Below, in pieces: positions 21,607 through 40,639 of a stretch of DNA of 48,617 nt. A program made the translations under genes and the position numbers. The DNA is taken from positions 1 through 48,617 of the forward strand of contig CALLKY010000003.1 in the NCBI GenBank assembly GCA_938083135.1. Direction: 5' to 3'. Each line of letters opens with the position of its first letter. Position 1 is the stretch's first letter. The notes below the pieces were generated by a model. It was not told the DNA's origin. It did not search any database and worked only from the letters and a program-made list of their open reading frames with translations. The DNA is from an uncultured Alphaproteobacteria bacterium. GTDB taxonomy: Bacteria > Pseudomonadota > Alphaproteobacteria > Bin95.

Positions 21607-22812
21607 TTGACCCCATCTTTTGATCCCCGTTATCGGATCGTATTCGGTGCCTGCGTGACGCAGTTTGCCGTTATTGGGCTGCTATTCGCATATGGCCTGT
21701 TCTTCGAAATATTCGAAAATGAGTTCGGCTGGCCGCGCGCGGTGCTCTCCGGTGCGATGTCGCTTGTGGTGCTGTCGATGGGGTTCCTGGCGGCGTTTAG
21801 TGGGAGGCTAAGCGATCTCTACGGCCCGCGCATCGTATTGAGCGTTTCCGGCATCGTATTCGGCATTGGCGTCGCGTCGATCTCGCAGATCAGTGCGCCA
21901 TGGCATCTCTTCCTGATTTTCACGATGTTTATCGGCGTCGGCATGGCGACCCATGATGTGGTGACATTATCGACCGTCGCGCGTTGGTTTGTGCGGCGGC
22001 GGGGGATGATGACTGGCGTTGTGAAAGTGGCGACAGCAATTGGCCAGATCAGCTTGCCTGCTGTCGTTGCTGCCTTGATCGCAGCGTTTGGCTGGCGCGA
22101 TGCCATCATGGTCACAGGTTTCGCTGCCGCAATTTTGCTGTTTGGCGCTGCCCAACTGGTGCGTCGACCTGAAGAGGGCGAGGCGACGGGGGCAAGTGAA
22201 GAAGCGGCAACCCCAGCGCCAGCCCCGATTGATTACAAGGCCGCGGTGCGAACACGGGTTTTCTGGATGCTATGCGCCGCGCAATTCCTATTTTTCCCGA
22301 TTCTTAGCGCCATCCCATTGCATATGGTGGCACATGGATCAGACCTTGGGCTGTCTGTCACGCAAGCAGCAGGGCTGGTTTCAACCATCGGCGCGGCTAG
22401 CATCGCTGGGCGATTGATTGTCGGTAATTTGATTGACCGTATCGGCGGTCGCGGCGCCTATATGCTTGGCCTGACGCCGCTGGTGCTGAGCCTTCTGGCG
22501 CTGTTGGCGATTGATGTGCCTTGGATGCTGTATGGCGTGATGGCGCTATATGGAATCGGCCATGGCGGCATGTTCACAGTCGTTTCGCCCACAATCGCCG
22601 AGTATTTTGGCGTTCAGTCCCTCGGCGCGCTGTTCGGCACCATCTTATTCTTCGGATCGCTCGGTGGTGCTGCTGGTCCAATCATGACCGGCTTTATCTT
22701 CGATTGGACAGGCAGTTACGCCGTCGCATTCACAATCCTCGCTATCATGGGCGGGCTAGCGCTACTGCTGATTTCCCTGCTGCCAAGGAAACTGCCTAGT
22801 CCACAGAGCTAG
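21607..22812 (+). CDS. MFS transporter
   Basis: A 401-residue major facilitator with about 12 predicted membrane helices. The family loop between helices 2 and 3 is seen as GRLSDLYGPRIVL, and its counterpart in the second half as GRLIVGNLIDRIGGRGAYMLG. The arrangement and the N-terminal FEIFENEFGWPRAVLSGA resemble monocarboxylate/oxalate-type (OFA or MCT-like) carriers. TTG 21607 is the start, with GGAGA upstream. Probably imports an organic acid or exports a product. Its last 17 nt overlap the convergent luciferase-like gene. Confidence 0.9.
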   Translation: MTPSFDPRYRIVFGACVTQFAVIGLLFAYGLFFEIFENEFGWPRAVLSGAMSLVVLSMGFLAAFSGRLSDLYGPRIVLSVSGIVFGIGVASISQISAPWHLFLIFTMFIGVGMATHDVVTLSTVARWFVRRRGMMTGVVKVATAIGQISLPAVVAALIAAFGWRDAIMVTGFAAAILLFGAAQLVRRPEEGEATGASEEAATPAPAPIDYKAAVRTRVFWMLCAAQFLFFPILSAIPLHMVAHGSDLGLSVTQAAGLVSTIGAASIAGRLIVGNLIDRIGGRGAYMLGLTPLVLSLLALLAIDVPWMLYGVMALYGIGHGGMFTVVSPTIAEYFGVQSLGALFGTILFFGSLGGAAGPIMTGFIFDWTGSYAVAFTILAIMGGLALLLISLLPRKLPSPQS

Positions 22813-23839
22813 CGACGTCCATAATCTGCTCTAGCGTCGCGATCCTGTCGGCAGCGCTGGCTTTGTCGTCCAAGCGGACGTTCAGGCAATTGACGCCGAC
22901 ATCGCGGTATTTGCGGAACCGTGCGCGGGCCATGTCGGGTGTGCCGAGCACTTGGAACTCTGTCACCATTGCGTCTGGGACGTTAGCGACAGCGGCATCC
23001 CGCTCGCCTGCTTTCCATAGGCGCTGGATTTCCAGGGCCTCGTCTTTGTACCCGGCCCGCTGGAATGCTTCGTTATAGAAGTTGGTTTTGGCGGAACCCA
23101 TCGCGCCCATCTGGAATGCAACTCCTGCCTTTGCAGTCGCGACCATCCCCTCAACATCCTCACCGATAGACATCGCAACTTGGGTGGATATCTCCATATC
23201 GGCTAGGTTTCTGCCTGCTTTGTCTGCCCCTTTGCGCATGTAATCGAAATGCGCTTCCGCGTGATCTGGCGAGAAGGAGGTTCCGAGCCAGCCATCTGCG
23301 GCCGCACCTGTATATTCAAGCGCGCGCGGGCCGAGTGTCGCCAGATAGATCGGGATGTCAGCGGGATTGACGTCCAACCGAAGCGCTTTGCCCTCGCCAC
23401 CAGGGCGGGGCAGCACGTGGACGTCACCGTCGTATTGCAGCTTCTCACCGGCGAATGCCATGCGACAGATTTCGACTGTTTCGCGCAGTCGTGTGAGCGG
23501 CTTGGCATAGGGCGCACCGTGCAGGCCTTCAACCACTTGCGGCCCGCTCACGCCAAGGCCAAGCCGGAACCGGCCACCAGAAATCTCGTTGAGCGAAAGC
23601 GCGGTCATTGCCGTCATCGCCGGGGCGCGGGCGCTGATCTGCATGATGCCGGTGCCAAGATGAATGCGTTCCGTTTTCGCCGCCAGATAGGCCAGAGTCG
23701 TGATCGCATCTTGCGCCCATGCCTCTGCCGACCAAACGCAATCAACGCCCATGCTATCCGCTGCTTGAACCACTTCAGATGCGGTTTTGATATCCTTGCC
23801 CGCAGCGCCGCCGACATAAATCGAGATTTTCATTGCCAT
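22796..23839 (-). CDS. Luciferase-like (LLM) oxidoreductase, F420-type subfamily
   Basis: A 347-residue luciferase-superfamily oxidoreductase, distinct from the one at 7304-8188. Blocks are MKISIYVGGAAGK, DCVWSAEAWAQDA, LGTGIMQISARAPAMTAMTA, GRFRLGLGVSGPQVVEGLHG and PIYLATLGPRALEYTGAAADGWLG, as in the F420-dependent enzymes of the mycobacterial Rv3520c type. Cofactor use in this organism is uncertain. A GAGGAG ribosome site precedes the ATG at 23839. It is the last gene of the minus-strand run that contains the selenoprotein, 71 nt after the thioredoxin-reductase-like gene, and may be a terminal partner of that system or simply a catabolic enzyme read through from it. Confidence 0.87.
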   Translation of the reverse strand: MAMKISIYVGGAAGKDIKTASEVVQAADSMGVDCVWSAEAWAQDAITTLAYLAAKTERIHLGTGIMQISARAPAMTAMTALSLNEISGGRFRLGLGVSGPQVVEGLHGAPYAKPLTRLRETVEICRMAFAGEKLQYDGDVHVLPRPGGEGKALRLDVNPADIPIYLATLGPRALEYTGAAADGWLGTSFSPDHAEAHFDYMRKGADKAGRNLADMEISTQVAMSIGEDVEGMVATAKAGVAFQMGAMGSAKTNFYNEAFQRAGYKDEALEIQRLWKAGERDAAVANVPDAMVTEFQVLGTPDMARARFRKYRDVGVNCLNVRLDDKASAADRIATLEQIMDVASSVD

Positions 23840-23910: not shown

Positions 23911-24813
23911 TTAACTGGCGATGGCCTGGGCTGCCGCCACAGCGTCTGCAACAGCATCTGCAATAGCGCCACCGTGATCAGCCCGGGCGGCACCGATGGC
24001 ATAGAGACCGGGAAGGGTGGTCTGCATGGTCGCGCCAACAGTTAATGCGCCATCCGCATTTCGTTTGGCTTCTGGCGGCGCTAGCGCTGTTTGTGGGGTC
24101 AGGCCAATAAACGGGAAAACCGCGGCGATTGGATGATCTTTCTCTGAACCGCTGGCTTGATCGTGGAGCCGTATAGCGTCCACGCCTTCGGTGCCAATGA
24201 TTGCGCGAACATCTATGCCAGTTCGAACGTGGACATTACTGTGAGCCCGAATCCGTTCAACGAAGTCTACACGCGCACGCGGCGCTGGCCCCCGGATCGC
24301 GACAGTGACTGAGGCGCAATGTTCCGCCAGGTGCAGCGCTTCCTGAAAAGCAGCATCGCCGCCACCAACTACAAGAACATCTTTGTCACGATACAGTCCA
24401 CCATCACAGAAGGCGCATTGGGATACGCCGCGGCCTGCTAGTTCTGTCTCTCCGGGAACGCCAAGCTGTTTCAACGCGGCACCTGTCGCGAAGATAATGG
24501 CGGGGCCAGCGGCTTCCTGCTCTGGTAGGTGCCAAAGCGCACCATCCTGCTGAAGCGCGGTGACGGCTCCCATCCGATAATCGGCACCAGCGACCAGCGC
24601 CCGTTCTAGCAGTGTGTTCACGAGGTCTGGGCCGCTTTCAGCCTCGCCCTCAACACCCTCCAGCTTGCCGACATTGGTGATTAGCCCGCCGAGGAAGCCA
24701 TCGTCGACCAGGGCCGTCGCGATGCCGCGTTCTGCCAGTTCAGCGGCGGCGGTTAGGCCTGCAACGCCAGCGCCAATGACTATGGCCCCGTGGGTTCCGC
24801 CGTTCGCTGTCAT
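23911..24813 (-). CDS. Thioredoxin-reductase-like FAD/NAD(P)H disulfide reductase
   Basis: A 300-residue flavoprotein with the domain order of low-molecular-weight thioredoxin reductase. The FAD site is VIGAGVAGLTAAAEL (about 12-26), then ATGAALKQLGVPGE (109-122), the redox disulfide CAFC (C133/C136 in SQCAFCDGG), the NADPH site VVGGGDAAFQEAL (148-160) and the C-terminal GLYAIGAARADHGG. Family TrxRs usually have CATC; the altered spacer and a weaker NADPH-binding region suggest a dedicated partner rather than housekeeping TrxR. It starts inside the stop of the upstream gene (ATGA), so it is translationally coupled to the cysteine-rich paralog pair and the selenoprotein, and most simply supplies their electrons. 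Confidence 0.9.
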   Translation of the reverse strand: MTANGGTHGAIVIGAGVAGLTAAAELAERGIATALVDDGFLGGLITNVGKLEGVEGEAESGPDLVNTLLERALVAGADYRMGAVTALQQDGALWHLPEQEAAGPAIIFATGAALKQLGVPGETELAGRGVSQCAFCDGGLYRDKDVLVVGGGDAAFQEALHLAEHCASVTVAIRGPAPRARVDFVERIRAHSNVHVRTGIDVRAIIGTEGVDAIRLHDQASGSEKDHPIAAVFPFIGLTPQTALAPPEAKRNADGALTVGATMQTTLPGLYAIGAARADHGGAIADAVADAVAAAQAIAS

Positions 24814-25847
24814 AGGTCTTGATCCTCAAGTGATTTCAGTGCGCGCGTTTGGATGGCAGACCCGCCGGCCCATAGCGGCAGATAGGTCATTTTCACACCT
24901 GGCCCACCGGTGATAATCGGCAGAATATCTTGTGGGGATGCAGCAATAGGTTTGGCCGCATTGATTGACATAACGCCCGGTATTTCAATGGATGTGGTTT
25001 CAAATATGAATGTCTGCATGTCGCCGATGCTCCAGCCATGCTTGTCTACGCCTGCCGCAAGTTCCGGCGGTAGCAGAAACACCTGTTGGCCGGGTGGGCG
25101 TGCCCGTCCCGCACTAGCGGCGGCACCCGTTGCAATCATGGCTGCGGCCATGGGCGTTAGGATGGCTTCGGGCGTGTCGCGGTCATCCAATGGCAACACT
25201 TCCACCGTGCCGGAGACACCCAGCACTGTGACAGCGCTTGCATCTGTGCCGAGGCCTTGGCGTTCCGCGAGGCCAGGATAGATTGTTGGCAGGGTTTCAG
25301 CACAGCAGAAGCTGTATTTCCCGGGTTGCCCCATCGTCGCCATATCGCCGGAGCCTTCACGTGCGCCGCCAATATTCCGCATGACAAGCGACACAGCCCG
25401 GCCAATCGCAGCGTTCGCGCGGGTGCCAGGACCAAGGCAGTTGGTGCCTGAATTCATGTCTAATTTTGCAGCGACGGGGCCATGTACGATTGTGGCGATG
25501 GCTGGTGTCCCGGTCGTCGTGAGCAATCCTAGGACATTGAATGCTGGGTCTAGGCAGGCTGTCGCTGCCGTCAGGACAACCGGCAATTCTGCCGGTATGC
25601 AGCCTGCAAGCATGCACTGATAGGCCACGGCGCGAGGTGTGAGGTCGCCATAGAGTGGGGGCAGCAGGCCGTGAGATCGATCTGGCTCTGCAACGCCTTC
25701 AAGCATGGCCTGGAGGTGACGATCTGTGGGTGGTGTCAGCGGCAGGCCGTCAGACAATTCCGCGGCTGCCAGCAAGGCCTGGGTTTCGTCAAAACCCATC
25801 GTTTCTGAGACGAGCGGCAAGGCTGCGTCTGCGCCGAACACGCTCAC
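24810..25847 (-). CDS. Unknown cysteine-motif protein, selenoprotein-operon partner B
   Basis: A 345-residue protein, not assigned to a known function. It is a clear paralog of the adjacent 346-residue protein: the two share DG(L/F)PL, (M)AGC(I/K)P, (N/S)GTNC-type (C137), ANA(A/T)IGRA, NIGGA, KY(S/A)FC (C181) and a C-terminal glycine-rich stretch (SP(Q/E)DI...GG.G...Y.P). Matching cysteines are C83, C137 and C181, with an extra C182. There is no signal peptide and no membrane helix, so it should be cytoplasmic. It overlaps both neighbours by 4 nt (ATGA), implying stoichiometric expression, perhaps as a heteromer with its paralog. The cysteines and the adjacent Sec protein and flavin reductase suggest a substrate-binding or catalytic thiol component. 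Confidence 0.8.
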   Translation of the reverse strand: MSVFGADAALPLVSETMGFDETQALLAAAELSDGLPLTPPTDRHLQAMLEGVAEPDRSHGLLPPLYGDLTPRAVAYQCMLAGCIPAELPVVLTAATACLDPAFNVLGLLTTTGTPAIATIVHGPVAAKLDMNSGTNCLGPGTRANAAIGRAVSLVMRNIGGAREGSGDMATMGQPGKYSFCCAETLPTIYPGLAERQGLGTDASAVTVLGVSGTVEVLPLDDRDTPEAILTPMAAAMIATGAAASAGRARPPGQQVFLLPPELAAGVDKHGWSIGDMQTFIFETTSIEIPGVMSINAAKPIAASPQDILPIITGGPGVKMTYLPLWAGGSAIQTRALKSLEDQDL

Positions 25848-26884
25848 CGGTTGGGCAACCGCACCGATGAGGCCTCTGTGAAGCCGAAGGTCGGGATATA
25901 AGCTGAATGCTTGCCAGCACCGCCTGCGACAAGAACCTGAATGTCCTCCGGCGACCGGGAGAGGTAATAGCGGCCGTTCCGAATTTCCTGTTCGCGCTCT
26001 TCGTAGTTCTTTTGGTTCTCGATGGATACGCGCTCCACGGGCACCGCTGAATCTTCGTACAGCTTCTCCTGCACGGCTTCGACCGACCAGCCATCACGGT
26101 GCACGGTCGCGGCGTGTTCCGGACCGAAAACCACGGTATAGGGGGCGGTGCCGTAGATCGTGTTGGCACCCGTCTGGGAGATGGATCCAGCGATGGTCGT
26201 CAGGATGCCTTCACCAGTGGTGCTGCCGTGATCATTGATATTATGTGGCGGCTCGGAGGGCAGGGCGGTGACGACGCTATCTGTCGCTGCAAAGCCCTTG
26301 CGCACATGATAGGGTTCCCACGGGCTTTCCTCTTCGTTCTCACCAAAGCAAAACGCATATTTTGCTGGTGAGCCTTGGGTCGAGCGATCCATTTCACCGG
26401 GCTTCGCGCCGCCAATATTCAGCAGCGTGAGTTGCAGCGCCCGCCCGATGGTCGCATTGGCAGGCCAGCCTTGGCCAAAGCAATTGCTGCCACAGTTGAC
26501 GCCAAGTTCCTTGCGGATCGGCCCGCTCAAGATGAGCATCGGCGCGCAAGGATGCGTCGTCGCCAGGGTTCCATGAAGATTATAGTCAGGGTTAAGAACG
26601 GCGCGTACTGCCGCTACAATTGTTGGAAAAAACTCTGGCTTACACCCAGCCATTACTGCATTGGCGGCGATGGATTCAAAGGTTGGCACAACCCGGCGTG
26701 GCGACATGGGCAAGAACGGCTCGTTGTCGCCATGTGCGGTTTCCATGAAGGCCGCGACTTTCGCTTCCGTTGGCATTACCAGCGGAAACCCATCACCCCA
26801 GCCCTGCGCCATGGCGTAATCGTTCCAAGCGTCCGGGTCGAGATTTTCCAGCTCAAGGACTTGGTCAGTCGTGATATCCGCCAT
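25844..26884 (-). CDS. Unknown cysteine-motif protein, selenoprotein-operon partner A
   Basis: A 346-residue protein of unrecognised function, paralogous to partner B at 24810-25847. Cysteines visible are C81 (MAGCKPE), C113, C131 and C135 (NCGSNCFG) and C179 (YAFCFGENEEE). C81, C135 and C179 align with the paralog's C83, C137 and C181, whereas C113 and C131 are private. This copy has a longer acidic insert after the FC motif. It starts 77 nt after the selenoprotein stop; the gap carries a 10-bp inverted repeat. A weak AAGAG ribosome site precedes the ATG. The two copies have probably diverged by duplication into different roles of one complex. Confidence 0.8.
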   Translation of the reverse strand: MADITTDQVLELENLDPDAWNDYAMAQGWGDGFPLVMPTEAKVAAFMETAHGDNEPFLPMSPRRVVPTFESIAANAVMAGCKPEFFPTIVAAVRAVLNPDYNLHGTLATTHPCAPMLILSGPIRKELGVNCGSNCFGQGWPANATIGRALQLTLLNIGGAKPGEMDRSTQGSPAKYAFCFGENEEESPWEPYHVRKGFAATDSVVTALPSEPPHNINDHGSTTGEGILTTIAGSISQTGANTIYGTAPYTVVFGPEHAATVHRDGWSVEAVQEKLYEDSAVPVERVSIENQKNYEEREQEIRNGRYYLSRSPEDIQVLVAGGAGKHSAYIPTFGFTEASSVRLPNR

Positions 26885-26904: not shown

Positions 26905-26934
26905 GCGCCCGGCGGCTGCAAGAGCGCCGGGCGC
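26905..26934 (-). other. 10-bp inverted repeat between the selenoprotein gene and partner A
   Basis: Perfect arms GCGCCCGGCG and CGCCGGGCGC enclose a 10-nt loop. In the mRNA this would be a very stable hairpin 26 nt after the selenoprotein stop and 20 nt before the partner A start. The minus-strand sequence after it (ACTTATG) is not a U-run, so a partial terminator, an RNA-processing stop or a translation modulator is likelier than a full terminator. Confidence 0.6.
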
Positions 26935-26960: not shown

Positions 26961-27482
26961 TTAGGCGTCCACAGAGCGCTTGAGTTCACTGAATGCTGTC
27001 TTGATCCGTTCGGCAAGTTCAGCCTCGTTCAGTCCGCCTACGGGGTGTTTGACGATCAGCAATTTGGGGTCAGCATTCCGGGCCTTAGCCTGCGCACGGA
27101 CAAGCGGCAGGAAGGTTTCGGTGATGACGATATAGGTCTCTACGCCGCGATCCTCTAAGTCGATACTGTCATGGAAACTCCACGACGAGCACGACCCTCA
27201 ATCCGCTAAAGCGACGATGGCCCCTTTATAATTCGCTGCGACTTGGTCAATCAGTGCTGCCGGGGCCGGCTGCGCTGCACTATCCTTGAACAGGTAGTCG
27301 ATATTATCGGTGGACCGGAAGTCGCCCATCATCGAGCGCACGCCTTGCAAGAGTTCCTGCGCGTTGGGCTTTAAGTTTGAGATAATGGCGATCGGGTCTT
27401 TGGACCAATCTGTCGGGGTTAGATTGTCCCCGTGCTTTTCGGCCTCCTGGGCCAGCCCGAAGGACGGATTAACGATCCGCAT
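26961..27482 (-). CDS. UGSC-family selenoprotein with in-frame TGA read as selenocysteine
   Basis: Read with TGA (27198-27200) as selenocysteine, this gene encodes 173 residues with Sec95 in ALADUGSCSSWSFHD. The frame upstream (94 residues from ATG 27482, AAGGAG six nt before it) and downstream (78 residues to TAA 26961-26963) is open and protein-like on both sides. The second half alternates strand-helix-strand: GAIVALAD, then U-G-S-C and a helix, VETYIVIT, a helix, LLIVKHPVGG. The U-x-x-C pair is a redox motif like CxxC. The name UGSC follows a family known to contain Sec or Cys forms. A SECIS-like hairpin starts 11 nt after the TGA. The gene lies 61 nt after BVMO 2 and heads the partner A/B/TrxR-like genes. 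A stop-at-TGA annotation would give a truncated 94-residue protein lacking the active site. Function unknown; thiol-dependent reduction is the best inference. Confidence 0.88.
27168..27186 (-). promoter_or_regulatory. Bacterial SECIS-like hairpin for selenocysteine insertion
   Basis: On the minus strand the TGA is followed by 11 nt and then by a 7-bp stem (GUCGUGG / CCAUGAC, one G-U pair) closing a 5-nt loop AGUUU. Bacterial SECIS elements are short stem-loops inside the coding region with a small apical loop carrying a G near its start, roughly 16-37 nt from the UGA; here the loop begins 18 nt after it with G as its second base. It should bind SelB. The fold is drawn by eye, not computed. 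Confidence 0.75.
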
Positions 27483-27543
27483 CTGCATCTCCTTCTGTGT
27501 GTATCGGTCAACGCTACCACCCGCATCCGGGGGCGGCAAACGG

Positions 27544-29184
27544 CTAGTCTAAGTTCAACTCCTTATATCCGCTGGCAGCCACGGCTTCACATTTCTCGCG
27601 ATATTCCGGCGCCGTGCCGCTATAGCGGACGATGGTGCGGGTCTGCTTGCCTTCAACATTCAGGTTGATGCCTGTCATCCAGGAATCGATTTCGTTCGAA
27701 AGCAGGCCTTCCGCCTTCTCTGAGACAAAGCTGTGCCATTCCGCGACGGCTTCCGCTGGCGCCTCCGCTTGGCGAACGCCATTGTCGCAAGCGTGGCCAA
27801 TCAAGCGGCTGATCCAGTCCACATTGTATTCAATGCTGCGCGGATTATTGCCGAGCGCCGCGTGCGGTCCCATGATCATGAACATATTTGGGAAATCATC
27901 GACCATCACGCCAACGAACGTGCGCGGCCCACCAGCCCATTTCTCTTTCAGCCGTGCGCCGCCCTTGCCTTGAATGTCGATCTTGTCGAATGCGCCCGTG
28001 ACAGCATCAAAACCTGTCGCGTAGATGATGACGTCAAATTCGTAATCCTGGGCGGACGTGCGGATCCCAGTTTCAGTAATGCGTTCAACAGGTTCTTCCA
28101 ACATGCTGACAAGCTTGACGTTATCCTGGTTATAAACCTCGTAGTACTTGGTCTCCTGGGGCACGCGGCGCGTGCCGAAGCCGTGGTCTTTTGGGATCAG
28201 CATGTCTGCTGTTTTCGGGTCTTTAACACGCTCACGGATTTTGTCTGCGACGAAATCTGACATAAGGCGGTTGGCCTCACGATCCACGAGCATGTCGCGG
28301 AAATTGCCTTGCCAGATGCCGAAGCCCTGACCGGCATAAAGGCTTTCCCAGAAGGCGTTGCGTTCTTCTTCCGTCACCTCAAATGTGCCGCGCAAATCAA
28401 CGGTGTGTATGAAGCATGCGGCAGTCTCCAGGCAGCGCTGGAAAATCTCAGGGTAGCGGCTGCGAATGTCCTCCATCTCGTCCTTCGGTATGGGACGATT
28501 ATGGAGCGGCGTGCACCAGTTGGGGCGGCGCTGGAACACAGTTAGGTGCTTGGCCGTCTTGGAAATCTCCTGGATCGCCTGAACGCCGCTGGCGCCAGTG
28601 CCAACCACAGCAACGCGCTTGCCTGCGTAGTCTATGCCTTCTTTTGGCCAAAGCCCGGTATGGGTCCACGGGCCTTTAAAGTCTTCGATGCCTTCAAACT
28701 TTGGCATTGTCGGTGTGGAGAGCAGGCCGATTGCGCTGACGATGAAACGCGCGCGGTAGGTCGTGCCATCGGCCAAAGTGACCGCCCAGCAGCAGGCTTC
28801 TTCGTCATAGTGGGCAGCATCGACGCGGGCGGAAAATTGGATGTCTTTGCGGAGGTCAAACTTGTCGGCGACCAGATTGCAGTAGCGTTCGATCTCTGGC
28901 TGGCCAGAGAAAGACTCACTCCAATCCCATTCATCCAGCAGCTCTTTCGAGAAGGAATAGCCGTAGGAGTAGCTTTCGGAATCAAAGCGCGCGCCAGGAT
29001 ATCGGTTCCAATACCACGTGCCGCCAACGCCTGTTCCAGTCTCCAACACCCGCACGTTGAGGCCAAGTTCGCGTAATCGGTACAGCTGGTACATGCCCGA
29101 AATGCCAGCACCGATTACGATGGCGTCAAAGTCGAGTGCGTCAGCGTTGGGTGTGCTGTTTTCAGCCAAAGCGGTCTGGTTCAT
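27544..29184 (-). CDS. Flavin-containing monooxygenase, Baeyer-Villiger type (BVMO 2)
   Basis: A 546-residue type I Baeyer-Villiger monooxygenase. FAD site VIGAGISGMYQLYRL (about 22-36), GTWYWNRYPGARFDSESY block, exact BVMO fingerprint FKGPWTHTGLWP, and NADPH site VVGTGASGVQAIQEI. It should convert a ketone to an ester or lactone with NADPH and O2 in the cytoplasm. The start at 29184 (MNQTALAENS) is preferred; the frame opens at 29232 and an intermediate ATG exists at 29214, with no ribosome site clearly better. It is shorter at the N-terminus than BVMO 1 and belongs to the cyclohexanone/cyclopentadecanone-monooxygenase-like group. An alpha/beta hydrolase lies upstream on the same strand and the selenoprotein 61 nt downstream. 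Confidence 0.92.
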   Translation of the reverse strand: MNQTALAENSTPNADALDFDAIVIGAGISGMYQLYRLRELGLNVRVLETGTGVGGTWYWNRYPGARFDSESYSYGYSFSKELLDEWDWSESFSGQPEIERYCNLVADKFDLRKDIQFSARVDAAHYDEEACCWAVTLADGTTYRARFIVSAIGLLSTPTMPKFEGIEDFKGPWTHTGLWPKEGIDYAGKRVAVVGTGASGVQAIQEISKTAKHLTVFQRRPNWCTPLHNRPIPKDEMEDIRSRYPEIFQRCLETAACFIHTVDLRGTFEVTEEERNAFWESLYAGQGFGIWQGNFRDMLVDREANRLMSDFVADKIRERVKDPKTADMLIPKDHGFGTRRVPQETKYYEVYNQDNVKLVSMLEEPVERITETGIRTSAQDYEFDVIIYATGFDAVTGAFDKIDIQGKGGARLKEKWAGGPRTFVGVMVDDFPNMFMIMGPHAALGNNPRSIEYNVDWISRLIGHACDNGVRQAEAPAEAVAEWHSFVSEKAEGLLSNEIDSWMTGINLNVEGKQTRTIVRYSGTAPEYREKCEAVAASGYKELNLD

Positions 29185-29277
29185 GGTCCTACAATGCTCT
29201 CCACGGGGCCGCATTGATGCGTGCGGTGTCAATTGCGGCTACGATAACGCCCAATCCGTTCATCGCCAACGCTAGTT

Positions 29278-38941: not shown

Positions 38942-40639
38942 TCAAAACAGGAAGTACCGCTGCGCCAAGCTGACGACTTCTGCGGGCTCACAGGTGAGCA
39001 ATGCGCCATTGGCTTTGACCTCGTAAGTCTCCGGGTTCACATCGATATCAGGCGTCAGCGTATTCAATTTCATCGAGGCTTTTGAGATATCGCGCACGCC
39101 CTTTATCGCGACCAACGCCTTATCCACCTCGAGCCCAGCATTCAGCCCGGCCTCACTCACGAAGGAAACGCTGGTCGCTGTTCTGGCTTTGCCGTAAGCG
39201 CCGAACATGGGCCGGTAATATTCTGGCTGTGGTGTTGGAATGGAGGCGTTCGGATCACCCATGACGGCAGCCGCGATCATGCCACCTTTCACCACCAGAT
39301 CAGGCTTCACGCCAAAGAAGGCAGGTGACCAAACAACCAGGTCCGCAAGCTTGCCCACTTCAACCGAGCCAATATGCTCGGACATGCCATGGGTAATGGC
39401 CGGGTTGATGGTATATTTGGCGATGTAGCGGCGGGCGCGGAGATTGTCATTGTCGCCGGTCTCACCATCCATTCGCCCAAACTGGCGCTTCATTTTATCT
39501 GCCGTCTGCCAAGTGCGGATCAGCACTTCGCCGACCCGGCCCATGGCCTGACTGTCGGACGCGATAATTGAGAACGCGCCCATATCATGCAGAATATCTT
39601 CCGCTGCAATGGTTTCCTTGCGGATACGGCTTTCGGCAAAGGCCACGTCTTCCGGAATGCGCGGGTCTAAGTGATGGCAGACCATGAGCATGTCCAAATG
39701 CTCATCAACTGTGTTGACCGTATAGGGCCGCGTTGGGTTGGTGGAGGACGGGATCACGTTATCCAACCCGCAGACCTTGATGATATCTGGCGCATGGCCA
39801 CCGCCCGCGCCTTCTGTATGAAACGCGTGGATGACGCGGCCTTTAAGGGCGGCGACAGTATCCTCAACAAAGCCGCTCTCGTTCAGCGTATCGGTATGAA
39901 TCATCGCCTGGATGTCCATTTCATCCGCAACATTGAGGCAGTTATCTATCGACGCTGGCGTTGTGCCCCAGTCCTCATGGAGTTTGAGCGCGCATGCGCC
40001 CGCGTTGATCTGGTCGATCAACGGCTCCGGTTCTGAGGTATTGCCTTTGCCGCTGAAGCCCAAATTCACAGGAAAAGCGTCTGACGCTTCGATCATGCGC
40101 GAGATATGCCATTCACCGGGCGTGCATGTGGTGGCATTGGTGCCCGTCGCCGGGCCGGTGCCGCCGCCGAGCATGGTGGTGACGCCAGAATAGAGCGCCT
40201 CGTCAATTTGCTGTGGGCAAATGAAGTGAATGTGACAGTCGAACCCGCCAGCTGTGATGATTTTGCCTTCGCCAGCAATGGCCTCGGTCGAGGGACCGAT
40301 GATGATATCGACGCCGTCCTGAACATCGGGATTGCCCGCTTTGCCGATGGCGACGATCCGACCGTCCTTGATGCCGATGTCCGCTTTTACGATGCCCCAA
40401 TAGTCCAAAATGACAGCGTTTGTGATGACGGTATCAACCGCACCATCGCGGCGACGGACCTGGGATTGGCCCATGCCGTCGCGAATGACCTTACCGCCGC
40501 CGAACTTCACTTCATCGCCGTAGGTCGTGAAGTCTTTCTCAACCTCAATGAAGAGTTCCGTATCAGCCAAACGGACTTTGTCGCCGACAGTCGGGCCGAA
40601 CATATCGGCATAGGCATTGCGTGAGATTTTTACTGGCAT
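38942..40639 (-). CDS. ureC: Urease alpha (catalytic) subunit UreC
   Basis: A 565-residue catalytic subunit that hydrolyses urea to ammonia and carbamate at a dinickel centre. Nickel ligands are H136 and H138 (CHIHF), carbamylated K219 (CALKLHED), H248 (MIHTD), H274 (HAFHTEG) and D362 (ASDSQAMG); the mobile flap carries C321, H322 and H323 (MVCHHLD). All key residues are present at family spacing. ATG 40639 ([16 protein letters not shown]) is the start; the upstream reading to 40915 overlaps ureB in another frame. It lies 4 nt after ureB. Confidence 0.98.

What the first reader, a model, noticed from the sequence alone, without database searches (positions are those of the whole stretch)
26961..27482. 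Hidden selenoprotein: UGSC-family gene with an in-frame TGA that standard annotation would cut in two
The frame is open for 94 codons before the TGA and 78 after it, on one strand and in one phase. The codons after the TGA read U-G-S-C, then helix-strand-helix-strand, ending in a natural stop. A 173-residue product with Sec95 is far more sensible than a 94-residue one that stops just before a redox motif. Ordinary gene finders will mis-annotate it, and its whole active-site half will be missed.
Basis: partly seen in the sequence, partly recalled or inferred. Interest (0 to 1): 0.92.

Follow-up and report, generated by a model that had tools for sequence, protein, structure and literature searches.

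The report
UGSC selenoprotein with an unnamed partner
A bacterial gene that looks cut short by a stop signal really encodes a full-length selenium-containing protein of a known but functionally mysterious family (UGSC); its constant neighbours and distant kinship suggest that it is the reactive half of a two-part reductase.

Summary
Confirmed. On the minus strand, 26961-27482 is one 173-codon frame whose only internal stop is a TGA at codon 95, read as selenocysteine. It matches Pfam UGSC (112.6 bits, cut-off 25) across the TGA. The genome holds selA, selB, selD and tRNA-Sec, and six UGSC genes, each with one TGA. In 14 genomes of the order, all 61 hits that reach the motif carry exactly one TGA. 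Forty-six loci elsewhere have Cys at this position. Selection is similarly strong before and after the TGA. A hairpin with a compensatory base change starts just after the UGA in Sec genes; Cys homologs show no such signal.

UGSC is a selenoprotein family described by 2008, function unknown, so the core finding is a new member of a known kind. Three context results go further. (1) An unnamed ~350-aa gene adjoins UGSC in all 46 Cys loci; in 115 genomes of the class both occur in the same 13. (2) The Sec half of UGSC is distantly related to the Sec half of GrdB/PrdB (hhalign 2.9e-6), Sec on Sec. (3) This subtype keeps a TrxR-like flavoprotein nearby.

Best reading: UGSC is the selenol subunit of a two-subunit reductase; the substrate is unknown.

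The parts
26961..27482 (-). UGSC-family selenoprotein gene, 173 aa with Sec95, ATG start and TAA stop
27198..27200 (-). in-frame TGA read as selenocysteine (codon 95)
   Evidence: Cys at this position in 46 loci
27168..27186 (-). core of the bacterial SECIS-like hairpin: 7 pairs with apical loop AGUUU (27175-27179); in this copy the stem extends to about 27158-27197
   Evidence: signal absent in Cys homologs
27489..27494 (-). Shine-Dalgarno AAGGAG, 6 nt before the ATG
   Evidence: sequence
25844..26884 (-). companion subunit A (346 aa), no Pfam or NCBIfam name; family found next to or fused with UGSC
24810..25847 (-). companion subunit B (345 aa), paralog of A (32% identity), overlapping A's stop; tandem A-B kept in related loci
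23911..24813 (-). thioredoxin-reductase-like flavoprotein with CxxC (CAFC), overlapping the stop of B; homologs near 4 of 4 related loci examined and 8 of 46 Cys loci
22796..23839 (-). luciferase-like (LLM, F420-type) monooxygenase at the end of the run of genes; association not seen in the other loci checked

Best explanation
The gene makes a full-length UGSC-family selenoprotein. SelB with Sec-tRNA(Sec) reads UGA-95 as Sec, directed by the hairpin just 3' of it (inferred from sequence and covariation; selenium itself not measured). The protein is the catalytic selenol subunit of a two-subunit reductase. Sec95, after the third beta strand and at the start of a helix of an alpha/beta fold, attacks the substrate in a complex with the ~350-aa companion (A, here with a second copy B). 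Cys98 then resolves the selenyl intermediate as a Se-S bridge, and in this operon the TrxR-like flavoprotein, directly or through a carrier, reduces it again. The chemistry would resemble the Sec subunits of glycine/betaine/proline reductases (GrdB/PrdB), with a different companion and without a detectable pyruvoyl-type subunit. Shown: the frame, family, Sec machinery, Sec/Cys exchange, hairpin, companion linkage and profile kinship. Inferred: the complex, the redox cycle and the reductase activity. Unknown: the substrate; neighbours suggest a catabolic pathway.
For: Sec: frame and UGSC profile across the TGA; selA/selB/selD/tRNA-Sec; 6 of 6 own copies, 61 of 61 order copies reaching the motif and 32 of 32 copies in the class sample with exactly one TGA; Cys at the same column in 46 loci of the 84,980-species collection; purifying selection after the TGA; hairpin paired in 97% of cells with a C-G/G-C exchange, folding z median -3.2 in Sec genes against -0.6 in Cys genes, Cys pairing at shuffle level. 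Companion: adjacent in 46 of 46 Cys loci and nearly all Sec loci, fused in two architectures, same 13 of 115 genomes. GrdB/PrdB kinship: hhalign 2.5e-5, 2.9e-6 with 71 sequences; score 48.7 against at most 18.8 in 40 column shuffles and 23.4 reversed. TrxR-like gene near 4 of 4 related loci examined and 8 of 46 Cys loci.
Against: No biochemical data. The companion has no detectable similarity to any Pfam family, so the pyruvoyl partner of glycine/proline reductase is not matched. The GrdB kinship covers only about 95 columns around the motif, and UGSC does not hit PF07355 directly. Most other Sec loci and 38 of 46 Cys loci show no TrxR-like gene within the DNA held. Two companion genes in this genome have no UGSC nearby.
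Confidence: 0.6

Rival explanations
1. A genuine selenoprotein, but a general thiol-disulfide or peroxide-type oxidoreductase with a thioredoxin-like fold (the suggestion in PMC2398784), not a GrdB/PrdB-like reductase.
For: U-x-x-C is a common redox motif; the 2008 paper suggested a Trx-like fold.
Against: The confident model (pLDDT 88.5) runs beta-alpha five times with Sec after the third strand, and Foldseek/VIA matches are flavodoxin-, FtsZ- and receiver-like alpha/beta proteins, though absence from such a list proves nothing. A dedicated companion and catabolic neighbours do not suit a general antioxidant.
Confidence: 0.2
2. A Sec/Cys enzyme working with the companion, but non-redox: Sec acts as a nucleophile or ligand (for example a hydrolase, lyase or transferase step in catabolism).
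For: Neighbours in Cys loci include amidohydrolases, CoA transferases, an enoyl-CoA hydratase and a lyase; only some loci hold a TrxR-like gene; the companion's weak Foldseek matches include fumarate hydratases.
Against: Invariant second Cys at U+3, kinship to a reductase family, and the TrxR-like gene in the window's own operon.
Confidence: 0.15
3. Programmed dual product: UGA acts as stop when selenium is scarce, giving a 94-residue protein with its own role.
For: UGA decoding as Sec is commonly incomplete in bacteria (general knowledge, not tested here).
Against: The first half is not more conserved than the second; the Cys homologs are full length.
Confidence: 0.03
4. Pseudogene with a nonsense mutation, or a sequencing error.
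For: Only that TGA is a stop codon in table 11.
Against: TGA at the same codon in 61 of 61 hits that reach the motif; constraint after the TGA.
Confidence: 0.01

Closest known systems
UGSC-containing selenoprotein family (Pfam PF24696; NCBIfam NF041046; PMC2398784)
   Same: Length, U-G-S-C motif, Sec/Cys exchange, profile match over residues 3-169.
   Different: Divergent branch: below the NCBIfam equivalog cut-off (106 against 125 bits), Trp instead of Cys at U+6, tandem companion genes.
GRDB / PrdB selenoproteins (PF07355): Sec subunits of glycine/sarcosine/betaine and proline reductases
   Same: Strand, [U]xxC, helix, E..G[IV]P, strand arrangement, with Sec aligned on Sec.
   Different: Different N-terminal half, no direct PF07355 match, different companion, no pyruvoyl-type subunit detected.
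UGSC/Unknown_1 fusion noted in the GOS study (PMC2398784)
   Same: UGSC fused to another conserved domain; the companion found here is fused to UGSC in L024 and L053/L054/L058.
   Different: The Unknown_1 alignment is in a supplement that could not be read, so identity with the companion is not tested.

Membership tests
UGSC family (PF24696) | Pfam gathering score of 25 bits | tested here: met
   112.6 bits, residues 3-169; 104.9 bits from DNA with the TGA
UGSC family (PF24696) | Conserved [U/C]-G-S-C motif with Sec or Cys | tested here: met
NCBIfam NF041046 equivalog | Curated cut-off of 125 bits | tested here: not met
   106.1 bits, E 1.5e-30: homologous but outside the equivalog, so not filed there
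Bacterial selenoprotein | Conserved in-frame UGA with Cys homologs | tested here: met
Bacterial selenoprotein | SECIS-type hairpin shortly 3' of the UGA | tested here: met
   negative control in Cys genes
Bacterial selenoprotein | selA, selB, selD and tRNA-Sec in the genome | tested here: met
   all over their cut-offs
Bacterial selenoprotein | Selenium incorporated into the protein | not testable with these tools
   needs 75Se labelling or mass spectrometry
GRDB/PrdB (PF07355) | Match to PF07355 | tested here: not met
   PF07355 is not among the matches of 23 UGSC proteins at E up to 10
GRDB/PrdB (PF07355) | Homologous Sec-bearing segment | tested here: met
   profile-profile 2.9e-6 with shuffle and reversal controls
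Glycine/proline reductase complex | Pyruvoyl-type partner (GrdE/PrdA) | tested here: not met
   no credible Pfam family for the companion, 19 members, E up to 10; the Asn-Cys in A and B is not kept in the family
Thioredoxin fold | Trx-like fold | tested here: inconclusive
   model is alpha/beta, Rossmann/flavodoxin-like; predicted only

The most novel reading that the evidence does not exclude
UGSC plus its unnamed companion is a widespread two-subunit Sec/Cys reductase in bacteria and haloarchaea, a counterpart of glycine/proline reductase outside Stickland fermentation, with a new kind of substrate subunit and a catabolic substrate not yet known.
Probability: 0.4. Interest if true: 0.65.

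Novelty: new member of a known kind. Interest (0 to 1): 0.42.

Why it matters
UGSC is one of the commonest selenoprotein families in aquatic metagenomes (PMC2398784), yet it remains functionally uncharacterised (PMC13188914). A companion gene that tracks it across genomes, kinship of its active site with GrdB/PrdB and a TrxR-like neighbour turn that into a testable question: co-express the pair and look for NADPH-dependent reduction. The natural Cys versions offer an expression route without selenium. The Cys-to-Trp change that comes with a hairpin base-pair swap suggests an RNA signal and a protein active site evolving together.

Tried and rejected
PDB sequence searches with UGSC and companion profiles gave nothing convincing. 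Structure search of the companion gave nothing above Z 6.7. The idea that the Asn-Cys in A and B (GSNC, GTNC) marks GrdE-like pyruvoyl cleavage was dropped: most family members lack the Cys there. A companion relation to GRDB was tested and not found. GRDB-like loci hold no companion and no UGSC in the stretches fetched. No paper held uses the phrase 'UGSC family'. The Rfam scan of the window showed no known recoding element. Neighbour surveys gave a catabolic flavour but no single recurrent enzyme beyond the TrxR-like gene.

Full report
What is there. The gene lies on the minus strand at 26961-27482. It starts with ATG behind an AAGGAG at 27489-27494, reads 94 codons to a TGA at 27198-27200, continues 78 codons and ends at TAA. 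A mechanical ORF list shows only the part before the TGA. The read-through protein of 173 residues matches Pfam UGSC over residues 3-169 at 112.6 bits and NCBIfam NF041046 'UGSC family (seleno)protein' at 106.1 bits, under that model's 125-bit cut-off. It is thus a divergent member of the Pfam family, outside the NCBI equivalog.

Is the TGA selenocysteine? The genome (4.15 Mb, 99.99% complete) contains selA and selB side by side on one contig, selD and a tRNA-Sec with anticodon TCA. It has six UGSC genes, each with one TGA. In 14 genomes of the order there are 62 hits: 61 contain exactly one TGA, and the last is a contig-edge fragment that begins after the motif. In 115 genomes of the class, 32 of 32 UGSC hits have one TGA. 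Cys replaces it, in the same column, in 46 loci from actinobacteria, proteobacteria, Bacteroidota and haloarchaea among others. Against three orthologs, dN/dS is about 0.14-0.19 before and 0.12-0.17 after the TGA (dS is near saturation, so the ratios are rough).

SECIS. A hairpin with apical loop AGUUU follows the UGA (mRNA positions 15-33 counted from the U of UGA; window 27168-27186). In 20 distinct Sec sequences 97% of cells pair, no shuffle reaches that, and sliding the partner by 1-3 columns drops pairing to 51% or less. The pair at positions 21 and 27 is C-G in 16 and G-C in 4; the window is one of the four, with TGC..TTG (Cys, Leu) changed to TGG..TTC (Trp, Phe). In Cys genes pairing is at shuffle level. 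Median folding z is -3.2 for Sec and -0.6 for Cys genes. Related sequences can inflate such counts, but the Cys genes serve as a control with the same protein motif. The fused L024-type genes have a different stem and were left out of the pair count.

The companion. Directly downstream are two paralogous genes of about 346 aa (A 25844-26884, B 24810-25847) without a Pfam or NCBIfam match. A homolog adjoins UGSC in 46 of 46 Cys loci and in nearly all Sec loci examined (the exceptions, L022 and L044, are one ortholog on short contig stretches), and it is fused to UGSC in two arrangements (575 aa in L024; 548 aa in L053, L054, L058). In the class sample both families occur in exactly the same 13 of 115 genomes. 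Plasmid records name UGSC in several cases but list the companion as 'hypothetical protein' or leave it unlisted. Two companions in this genome have no UGSC in the stretch fetched. The UGSC-A-B order returns in L127, L130 and L131, each with a TrxR-like gene in the stretch; a fourth locus (L132) has a fused UGSC-companion, a second companion and a TrxR-like gene. TrxR-like genes also sit near 8 of 46 Cys loci. The background rate of such neighbours was not measured.

Fold and kinship. The UGSC model is confident (pLDDT 88.5): five beta-alpha units, Sec after strand 3. Matches are generic alpha/beta proteins. That does not favour the Trx-like fold suggested in 2008 (PMC2398784), but a model is not a structure. 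Profile comparison with GRDB/PrdB-like proteins collected from genomes of the class aligns the Sec of one on the Sec of the other: 2.5e-5, 2.9e-6 with 71 UGSC sequences; score 48.7 against at most 18.8 in 40 column shuffles and 23.4 for the reversed profile. I infer a shared active-site segment. Membership in PF07355 is not claimed, because UGSC does not match that model.

Mechanism. From these facts the most likely role is the selenol subunit of a two-subunit reductase: Sec95 attacks, Cys98 resolves, the TrxR-like protein (CxxC present) resets. The complex, the cycle and the substrate are inferred or unknown. Neighbours of Cys loci (CoA transferase, enoyl-CoA hydratase, amidohydrolase, acyl-CoA dehydrogenase, LysR and GntR regulators) point to catabolism, as do the flavin monooxygenase (27544-29232), alpha/beta hydrolase and GST genes next to the window's operon.

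Verdict. The family has been in the literature since 2008 at the latest (PMC2398784), and a 2026 review counts it among selenoproteins whose functions remain largely uncharacterised (PMC13188914). The companion's constant linkage and the GrdB/PrdB kinship were not found in the papers searched, which cover only open-licence literature, so priority cannot be claimed.

Noticed in passing
G000 C69, C33, C97, C106 (L107, L116): The same genome carries four GRDB/PrdB-like genes; the two read in full (L107, L116) stop at a TGA followed by P-N-C and a long open frame, so they look like further selenoproteins.
   Followed up: partly
window 26905-26934: A strong G+C-rich inverted repeat lies between the UGSC stop and the start of companion A, without a U run in the mRNA; perhaps an internal mRNA stabiliser or attenuator.
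   Followed up: no
window 40200-40484 (+): Rfam 5_ureB_sRNA match of 123 bits, probably reflecting a conserved urease gene rather than a shown sRNA.
   Followed up: no
L059, 2624-3526 and 8396-9493: A Myxococcales contig holds one Cys and one Sec (TGA, UGAC motif) UGSC gene, each with a companion, a few kilobases apart.
   Followed up: no
G000 C14:16122-17147 and C134:29544-30542: Companion homologs without a detectable UGSC gene in the stretch fetched; they may work with a distant UGSC or have another role.
   Followed up: partly
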